Assembly (NCBI RefSeq): GCF_030767025.1
Contig: NZ_JASITE010000002.1
Span: 606,363 to 670,362 of the forward strand
Direction of reading: 5' to 3'
Source of the DNA: Nocardia sp. CC227C
GTDB lineage: Bacteria > Actinomycetota > Actinomycetes > Mycobacteriales > Mycobacteriaceae
DNA length: 64,000 bases
Made by a program: the position numbers and the translations under genes. Shown one piece after another: positions 27,181 to 28,419 of the stretch; within the stretch, counting starts at the first letter, position 1, and the number at the start of each line of letters is the position of its first letter. The notes beneath the pieces were generated by a model. The model did not search any database. It was given only the letters and a program-made list of their open reading frames with translations, and was not told the origin of the DNA.

Positions 27181-27462
27181 TCACTCCCCCGAGTCGACCC
27201 GCCGCGTCTCCACCTGGGTGTACGTGGTCCGGATCTCCATGGTGAGGCGCTGGCGCAGGGTGTCGGGGGCCTTGTCGCCGCCGCACTTGCGGTTGAGCAG
27301 GCGCTTGAGCTTCTCCTCCAGGCCGTACTGTTCGATGCACGGGGAGCAGTGATCCATATGGTGCTGGAGACGGTCGCGGGTGGCCTGATCGCATTCACCG
27401 TCCAGGATCAGCCACACATCGGCGAGTACCGCCGAGCAGTCCAGGTCCATATCGTCGCTCAC
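27181..27462 (-). CDS. rshA: Zinc-binding anti-sigma factor (RshA/RsrA-type)
   Basis: A 93-residue ZAS-domain protein. It carries C9 and C24, the H-x3-C-x2-C motif in HMDHCSPC (about residues 38-42) and another cysteine in KCGG. In this family zinc bound by the His and Cys ligands holds SigH inactive; disulfide formation under thiol stress releases it. GTG 27462 overlaps the sigH stop by GTGA (27462-27459), with AGGAGG upstream inside sigH, so it is translationally coupled to its target. The C-terminal tail after residue 75 is polar and not conserved. Confidence 0.93.
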   Translation of the reverse strand: MSDDMDLDCSAVLADVWLILDGECDQATRDRLQHHMDHCSPCIEQYGLEEKLKRLLNRKCGGDKAPDTLRQRLTMEIRTTYTQVETRRVDSGE

Positions 27463-28181
27463 TGGGTTACCTCCTGACGCGCGCTACCCGATCGGTTGAA
27501 TCCCCGTTCCCGCGCCACGTCGGCGAGCAGACCCTTGAGCTGCTTGCGGCCGCGGTGCAGGCGAGACATCACGGTGCCGATCGGGGTACCCATGATCTCG
27601 GCGATTTCCTTGTAGGGGAAGCCCTCTACGTCCGCGTAGTAGACCGCCATCCGGAATTCCTCCGGAAGCTCCTGTAAAGCCCGCTTGATCTCGTCGTCCG
27701 GCAGCGCCTCGAGCGCCTCCATCTCGGCCGAGCGCAGGCCCGTCGAGGTGTGCTCGGCGGTGGCGGCCAGCTGCCAGTCGGTGATCTCGTCGGTCGGATA
27801 CTGCGCGGGCTGGCGCTGCTTCTTCCGATACGAGTTGATGTAGGTGTTGGTGAGGATGCGGTACAGCCAGGCGCGCAGGTTGGTGCCCTCCCGGAAGGAG
27901 CGGAAACCCTGGTACGCCTTGGCGAAGGTCTCCTGCACCAGATCCTCGGCATCGGCCGGATTGCGGGTCATGCGCAGGGCCGCGCCGTAGAGCTGGTCGA
28001 GCAGCGGGAGCGCGTCGCGTTCGAAACGCGCGGCCAGATCGGCGTCACTGGCGGTGCTGCGGACCGCGCCGGATTCCTCGTCGTTGTCGTCGACCACCGG
28101 GTCGTCGATGCCCTCGTTCATGGCCGTATCGTCATCGCCTGGGCGATCGACAGCCATTTCGTCGTCGCTCGTCACGCTCAT
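27459..28181 (-). CDS. sigH: ECF sigma factor SigH (SigR-type)
   Basis: A 240-residue ECF sigma factor. Sigma-2 includes LPLLDQLYGAALRMTRNPADAEDLVQETF and AWLYRILTNTYIN; sigma-4 includes EEFRMAVYYADVEGFPYKEIAE and GTPIGTVMSRLHRGRK. It should direct transcription of thioredoxin, Clp and thiol-repair genes during oxidative or heat stress. The start is ATG 28181 or GTG 28175 (GAAGGG six bases before the latter). The frame stays open upstream to ATG 28385, which lies eight bases after the -10 of a SigH-type promoter (28419-28393), so a form 68 residues longer is plausible, as known for SigR' in Streptomyces. The stop overlaps rshA. Confidence 0.94.
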   Translation of the reverse strand: MSVTSDDEMAVDRPGDDDTAMNEGIDDPVVDDNDEESGAVRSTASDADLAARFERDALPLLDQLYGAALRMTRNPADAEDLVQETFAKAYQGFRSFREGTNLRAWLYRILTNTYINSYRKKQRQPAQYPTDEITDWQLAATAEHTSTGLRSAEMEALEALPDDEIKRALQELPEEFRMAVYYADVEGFPYKEIAEIMGTPIGTVMSRLHRGRKQLKGLLADVARERGFNRSGSARQEVTQ

Positions 28182-28392
28182 CCCTTCGATCGCCGTAGCT
28201 TGTGAATCTACCGCGAGCGGGGTGAGCACCGCGAAACCGGCATCGGTCGCGGACCCGGGAATGCGGACGAGCGGCAGGGTCCCGGTCGAGCGGGCCTGCG
28301 CCATCCGCGGGCGGGTGTCCACCAGAACGGTCACCGGGGCATCTCCTTCGCACACTCCGCCGACCGGGTCGTTTCGGTCGCGCATGGCGTGC

Positions 28393-28419
28393 AACATGCC
28401 GGGTGGTCGCCGTGTTCCC
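28393..28419 (-). promoter_or_regulatory. SigH-type autoregulatory promoter
   Basis: On the reverse strand GGGAAC (28419-28414), 18 bases, then GTT (28395-28393) match the SigH/SigR consensus GGAAC/T-N18-GTT. ATG 28385, in frame with sigH, starts eight bases after the GTT, so the transcript may be leaderless for an extended SigH. Confidence 0.7.

What the first reader, a model, noticed from the sequence alone, without database searches (positions are those of the whole stretch)
27459..28419. A SigH-type promoter that would start sigH mRNA at an in-frame ATG, giving an extended SigH isoform
Seen: GGGAAC-N18-GTT on the reverse strand (28419-28393), with ATG 28385 eight bases after the GTT, and an uninterrupted frame of 68 codons from there to the normal start at 28181. 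Known: Streptomyces SigR has a stress-induced promoter that produces a longer, unstable SigR' form. Inference: this organism has the same type of feedback, with a longer N-terminal extension and a leaderless start.
Basis: partly seen in the sequence, partly recalled or inferred. Interest (0 to 1): 0.72.

Follow-up and report, generated by a model that had tools for sequence, protein, structure and literature searches.

The report
Nocardia's two-start stress sigma factor
In all 147 Nocardia genomes in which the stress-switch gene sigH was found, a stress-type promoter sits in front of the gene together with an extra in-frame start signal; under thiol stress this would likely make a longer, probably short-lived SigH like the one known in Streptomyces, although the longer protein is predicted to begin at a different codon from the one first proposed.

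Summary
The promoter is real: GGGAACA-N16-TGTT at 28419-28393, with GGGAACA...GTT in 147 of 147 Nocardia sigH loci. An extended isoform is very likely, but both start codons in the finding look wrong. ATG 28385 is not conserved: 47 of 147 loci have an in-frame stop between the -10 and the extension, and 13 of 147 have an open in-frame ATG near the -10. Instead 146 of 147 have a Shine-Dalgarno and an in-frame GTG/TTG (window GTG 28334) leading into [VL][TPS][VL]L..ERP. These codons evolve as protein: pN/pS 0.42-0.47 in frame, 1.1-2.9 out of frame, about 1 in the leader. The short form most likely starts at GTG 28175 (GAAGGG and GTG in 147 of 147; ATG at 28181 in 22). An invariant TAGATT, a predicted housekeeping -10, lies inside the extension. 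The layout matches Streptomyces SigR/SigR'; the extension sequence does not, and clpP1P2, clpX and clpC1 show no conserved SigH motif. Instability is inferred. In mycobacteria a -10-like hexamer lies just before the extended start instead (24 of 25 loci; 0 of 147 Nocardia).

The parts
28413..28419 (-). p2 -35 element GGGAACA (SigH type)
   Evidence: Invariant in 147 of 147 Nocardia loci
28390..28396 (-). p2 -10 element TGTTGCA; transcription predicted to start near 28386-28383
   Evidence: GTT in 147 of 147, GTTG in 146, the A in 144; start position inferred
28383..28385 (-).
   Evidence: Open in-frame ATG within 15 nt of GTT in 13 of 147, at the same place in 3 of 147
28343..28348 (-). Shine-Dalgarno AAGGAG of the extended form, 8 nt before its start
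   Evidence: Match of 5 or more bases in 146 of 147
28176..28334 (-). Predicted SigH' extension, 53 codons, start GTG 28334-28332
   Evidence: In-frame GTG/TTG in 146 of 147, open to sigH in 147 of 147, 30-63 codons
28305..28334 (-). Conserved N-terminal motif, codons 1-10 (VTVLVDTRPR here)
   Evidence: pN/pS 0.42-0.47 over codons 2-10 in frame; residue counts
28233..28235 (-). TTC, possible start of a p1 -35 hexamer (19-nt spacer to the -10)
   Evidence: TT at this distance in 143 of 147 at each base; only 2-5 of 6 letters match TTGACA
28205..28210 (-). Predicted p1 -10 TAGATT inside the extension; p1 start predicted near A 28196
   Evidence: GTAGATT invariant in 147 of 147, 35 nt before the short start; GTA is 4.5% of Val codons in these genes
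28182..28187 (-). Shine-Dalgarno GAAGGG of the short form, 6 nt before GTG 28175
   Evidence: 147 of 147
27459..28175 (-). sigH, short form, predicted start GTG 28175-28173
   Evidence: GTG in 147 of 147; TIGR02947 SigH_actino 371 bits, cut-off 251.55
27181..27462 (-). rsrA/rshA-type anti-sigma factor, start overlaps the sigH stop
   Evidence: TIGR03988 antisig_RsrA 106 bits, cut-off 62.5

Best explanation
The sigH gene carries two nested start units: a SigH-type promoter (p2) followed by a ribosome-binding site and in-frame GTG 28334, which would likely make a SigH about 53 residues longer during thiol stress, and, inside that stretch, a predicted housekeeping promoter (p1) followed by a ribosome-binding site and GTG 28175, which would make the normal SigH. 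As in Streptomyces, p1 would supply short SigH held by the adjacent RsrA-type anti-sigma factor; oxidation would free it, SigH would fire p2, and the extended SigH' would amplify the response. The predicted disordered tail with its conserved N-terminal motif is predicted to make SigH' short-lived, so that the burst ends by itself. Shown here: the DNA signals, their conservation and protein-level selection on codons 2-10. Inferred: promoter activity, the two proteins, the instability and the role of the motif.
For: GGGAACA...GTT in 147 of 147; SD plus in-frame GTG/TTG in 146 of 147 and frame open to sigH in 147; a frame-blind pattern for SD, start and motif hit 136 of 147, always in the sigH frame (11 no hit); pN/pS of codons 2-10 0.42-0.47 in frame against 1.10-1.80 and 2.69-2.89; leader length modulo 3 57/48/42, so the leader is not frame-bound; short start GTG with GAAGGG and GTAGATT in 147 of 147; adjacent RsrA-type gene; the same reading applied to 10 Streptomyces-like genomes gives 55 residues in 7, the published length; AlphaFold2 pLDDT under 50 for residues 1-4 and 6-91.
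Against: No transcript or protein data. Beyond codon 10 constraint on the extension is weak (pN/pS 1.05-1.14 without gaps; 0.76 aligned). The extension is not detectably related to the Streptomyces one. clpP1P2-clpX show no SigH-type motif in this genome; clpC1 has one here but only in 3 of 30 loci, so an inducible Clp arm is not supported. p1 has only a weak -35.
Confidence: 0.72

Rival explanations
1. One reading: p2 makes a leaderless mRNA translated from ATG 28385, 68 codons before ATG 28181.
For: ATG 28385 lies where a p2 transcript could begin and its frame is open in this genome.
Against: Open in-frame ATG near the -10 in 13 of 147 and at this place in 3 of 147; in-frame stop downstream of the -10 in 47 of 147; leader pN/pS about 1 in all frames.
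Confidence: 0.06
2. Both forms are made, but the extension does not shorten the life of SigH; it acts otherwise (for example on anti-sigma binding or localisation) or hardly at all.
For: The extension is unrelated in sequence to the Streptomyces one; clpP1P2, clpX and clpC1 lack a conserved SigH motif; the shorter M. tuberculosis SigE isoforms showed no main functional difference (PMC10027907, passages).
Against: Same layout, similar length and predicted disorder as a form shown to be unstable in Streptomyces; the first codons are under selection as protein.
Confidence: 0.25
3. Only the long form exists: sigH is misannotated and GTG 28334 is its sole start.
For: The long frame is open in 147 of 147.
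Against: GTAGATT, GAAGGG and GTG 28175 are invariant with fixed spacing in 147 of 147 although the stretch varies in length, and rare codons are kept there.
Confidence: 0.05

Closest known systems
Streptomyces SigR / SigR' (Kim et al. 2009, not held; as described in PMC4921905 and PMC5472188, passages seen)
   Same: SigH/SigR-type promoter upstream, in-frame start between two promoters, inner promoter for the short form, extension of 50-odd residues, adjacent RsrA-type gene
   Different: Extension sequence unrelated; starts are GTG/GTG here instead of ATG and GTC; clpP1P2, clpX and clpC1 show no conserved SigH motif here; instability untested
Mycobacterium tuberculosis sigH with sigHp1 and sigHp2 (PMC4921905, passages)
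   Same: Two promoters, the upstream one recognised by SigH
   Different: In the mycobacterial loci compared (M. tuberculosis itself not among them) a -10-like hexamer lies before, not inside, the extension (24 of 25); a peptide supports the annotated short start in M. tuberculosis (PMC5472188, passage)
M. tuberculosis SigE isoforms (PMC10027907, passages)
   Same: Promoter choice changes the N-terminus of an ECF sigma factor under oxidative stress
   Different: There the SigH-dependent promoter is internal and yields shorter forms
Corynebacterium glutamicum sigH-rshA (PMC3489674, passages)
   Same: sigH and anti-sigma gene in one operon
   Different: sigH has SigA-type promoters; the SigH-dependent promoter drives rshA

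Membership tests
SigR/SigH-RsrA thiol-stress module | Sigma factor of the SigH_actino type | tested here: met
   TIGR02947 371.1 bits, cut-off 251.55
SigR/SigH-RsrA thiol-stress module | Adjacent RsrA-type zinc anti-sigma factor | tested here: met
   TIGR03988 106.1 bits, cut-off 62.5; PF13490 zf-HC2
SigR' type of extended isoform | SigR/SigH-type promoter upstream of the extension | tested here: met
   147 of 147 by sequence; activity not testable
SigR' type of extended isoform | In-frame start with ribosome site after that promoter | tested here: met
   146 of 147; selection as protein on codons 2-10
SigR' type of extended isoform | Inner SigR-independent promoter giving the short form | tested here: inconclusive
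   GTAGATT, GAAGGG, GTG invariant in 147 of 147 but only a weak -35 and no mapped transcript
SigR' type of extended isoform | Extended form is unstable and degraded by Clp proteases | not testable with these tools
   Needs protein half-lives
SigR' type of extended isoform | Clp protease genes belong to the regulon | tested here: inconclusive
   No motif at clpP1P2-clpX in this genome; clpC1 3 of 30, this genome among the 3; clpB, a chaperone, 29 of 30
SigR' type of extended isoform | Extension homologous to the Streptomyces extension (not known to be required) | tested here: not met
   hhalign probability 0.2%, one aligned column

The most novel reading that the evidence does not exclude
The first ten residues of the extension, M-[TPS]-[VL]-L-x-x-E-R-P, are a portable degradation tag shared across Mycobacteriales, and the order uses two wirings of one stress timer: in Nocardia, Rhodococcus and Dietzia the housekeeping promoter lies inside the tagged stretch, so only stress makes tagged SigH; in mycobacteria it sits just in front of the tagged start, so the choice between tagged and untagged SigH is made by where the mRNA begins relative to the ribosome-binding site.
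Probability: 0.3. Interest if true: 0.62.

Novelty: new member of a known kind. Interest (0 to 1): 0.42.

Why it matters
It corrects two predicted start codons of a central stress regulator throughout Nocardia, extends the SigR' feedback design to a genus for which my library searches listed no report of it, and narrows the still unlocated feature that would make the long form short-lived to about ten residues under measurable selection. It also shows that the presumed housekeeping promoter sits on different sides of the extended start in Nocardia and in mycobacteria, which makes the question of which isoform unstressed cells make directly testable.

Tried and rejected
Leaderless ATG 28385 and ATG 28181 as starts: rejected on conservation. 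Homology of the extension with the Streptomyces one: tested, not found. SigH control of Clp proteases as the negative arm: looked for, not supported. pN/pS over the whole extension: 0.76 against 0.94 and 1.46 in the other frames, weak (which printed the close bin and then stopped with a division by zero); per-segment counts replaced it. Kim et al. 2012 was not held; Kim et al. 2009 was seen only as other papers describe it. The deep protein search, viral and metagenome scans and fold searches were not used; they would not decide between the rivals.

Rows dropped: 3 of 150 genus genomes had no sigH match (78-88% complete). Of 80 named loci, 15 are Nocardia and were not counted again; of the other 65, 42 went into, with extended starts chosen by eye from the candidates; 23 were left out (no start that I could choose clearly, contig edge, distant family or near-duplicate), among them the mycobacterial L032 and L072. 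L067, titled only Mycobacteriaceae, was counted with the non-mycobacterial loci. Searches examined the 30 best loci each, from 59 and 58 genomes with matches.

Full report
WHAT IS THERE. On the minus strand GGGAACA (28419-28413) is followed after 16 bases by TGTT, and ATG 28385 opens a frame of 68 codons to ATG 28181. The window's sigH product is 98% identical to that of Nocardia otitidiscaviarum. The protein passes the SigH_actino model and the next gene the RsrA model. The looser promoter pattern occurs 59 times in the genome against 12 for its reverse; one copy lies just upstream of trxB.

CONSERVATION IN THE GENUS. Of 150 genomes of the genus searched, 147 have a sigH match; the three without are 78-88% complete. 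I took the upstream DNA of all 147. GGGAACA...GTT is in 147 of 147, 143 with the window's spacing and 4 one base longer. After it an in-frame GTG (140) or TTG (6) with a Shine-Dalgarno match of 5 or more is found in 146 of 147; in the last (L204) the script took an ATG with a 4-base match, two codons before a GTG at the conserved place. From GTT to this start are 34-113 nt (median 73), modulo 3 57/48/42. From this start to the short start are 30-63 codons (median 40; 53 here). A nucleotide pattern for ribosome site, start and motif, blind to frame, hit 136 of 147, always in the sigH frame; 11 had no hit.

47 of 147 loci have an in-frame stop between the -10 and the conserved start, so translation begun at such an ATG could not reach SigH there; 13 of 147 have an open in-frame ATG within 15 nt of the -10, 3 at the window's place. 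For the short form, the codon at 28181 is ATG in 22 of 147 and the Shine-Dalgarno touches it, while GTG 28175, with GAAGGG 6 nt before it, is invariant in 147 of 147. A leaderless start peculiar to this species is not excluded.

IS THE EXTENSION PROTEIN? At codons 2-10 residues persist while codons change: position 4 is Leu in 145 of 147 with five codons, position 9 Pro in 145 with four, position 8 Arg in 134 with three. Uncorrected pN/pS is 0.42, 0.44 and 0.47 in three divergence bins (507, 5381 and 4813 pairs), against 1.10-1.80 and 2.69-2.89 in the other frames and 0.94-1.04 in the leader. Pairs are not independent, so this is descriptive. Beyond codon 10 constraint is weak: 1.05-1.14 without gaps; 0.76 for the aligned part before p1, near the 0.69 of the variable N-terminus of SigH itself (incomplete). 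AlphaFold2 on 46 sequences gives pLDDT under 50 for residues 1-4 and 6-91. So it looks like a disordered tail with one conserved N-terminal motif.

THE INNER PROMOTER. GTAGATT is invariant in 147 of 147; TAGATT begins 35 nt before GTG 28175, although GTA is 4.5% of Val and GAT 19.6% of Asp codons counted in the same genes. TT at -60/-59 is kept in 143 of 147 at each base, 19 nt before the -10 if it opens a -35, but the match to TTGACA is only 2-5 of 6 letters; it also falls in a Phe/Leu codon. I read this as a housekeeping promoter p1 starting near A 28196: a prediction. TANNNT at the same 35-nt distance from an SD-led in-frame start occurs in 12 of 17 non-Nocardia, non-mycobacterial loci and in 0 of 25 mycobacterial ones.

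MECHANISM. The layout is that of Streptomyces sigR: SigR fires an upstream promoter and a form 55 (58 in another paper) residues longer is made, with a half-life of about 10 minutes (PMC4921905, passages; PMC5472188, passages). Ten genomes that by size and start sequence look like Streptomyces gave, by the same reading, 55 residues in 7 of 10 and a GGGAAT...GTT promoter in 10 of 10, which checks the method. I infer the same positive loop and, less surely, the same self-limiting loop in Nocardia. Against the second: the extension is unrelated in sequence; the clpP1P2-clpX stretch of this genome has no SigH-type motif; clpC1 has one here but only in 3 of 30 loci. clpB has one in 29 of 30, and a sigE-type gene carries one upstream, so control could be indirect.

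BEYOND NOCARDIA. The SD-GTG and motif recur in named Mycobacteriales, for example VPTVCLERPV (Mycolicibacterium), VPVLCPPRPV (Rhodococcus), MGAMVLDRPG (Gordonia). It is not universal: several slow-growing mycobacteria read VSTATSLLG instead, and 15 of 28 mycobacterial loci show no p2 match with my pattern. A -10-like TANNNT lies 19-27 nt before the extended start in 24 of 25 mycobacterial loci, 0 of 17 others and 0 of 147 Nocardia. A transcript from it would begin in or near the ribosome site of the extended start, so which isoform it makes cannot be told here. Starts in these 42 loci were chosen by eye.

NOVELTY. The kind is known (SigR'); the 2009 paper's title speaks of actinomycetes, but the paper was not held and I do not know how far it covers mycobacteria or Nocardia. 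Six searches of the held library (listings, plus passages of PMC4921905, PMC5472188, PMC3489674, PMC10027907, PMC6282962 and PMC4960319) showed no SigH isoform in Nocardia. I file this as a new member of a known kind, with corrected starts and a candidate tag.

Noticed in passing
Mycobacterial loci among L027-L071, 19-27 nt before the extended start: A -10-like TANNNT (often CTTTAGATT or CTCTAGGAT) precedes the extended start in 24 of 25 mycobacterial loci, 0 of 17 other Mycobacteriales and 0 of 147 Nocardia, where it lies inside the extension.
   Followed up: partly
L296 and L309-L338 (clpB); L297 and L339-L368 (clpC1); L298 (clpP1P2-clpX): A GGAAC...GTT motif lies upstream of clpB in 29 of 30 Nocardia loci, of clpC1 in 3 of 30 (this genome included), and nowhere in the clpP1P2-clpX stretch of this genome.
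   Followed up: partly
G000:C4:142570-142597 (L272): A SigH-type motif lies upstream of a SigE-family gene (NF007229, 335 bits, cut-off 265), suggesting that SigH may feed sigE.
   Followed up: no
28478-28966 (+): Divergent gene beginning about 60 nt from p2: Cys-tRNA(Pro) deacylase family (TIGR00011, 164 bits, cut-off 153).
   Followed up: no
L236-L245: Streptomyces-like extensions share MGST[IF]CPS (8 of 10) and a later WTVLHAAK-like stretch; the extension is 52-74 residues, 55 in 7 of 10.
   Followed up: partly
L072 (Mycobacterium uberis): No p2 match and the frame upstream of sigH opens only 45 nt before the match; the extension may be lost or decayed there.
   Followed up: no
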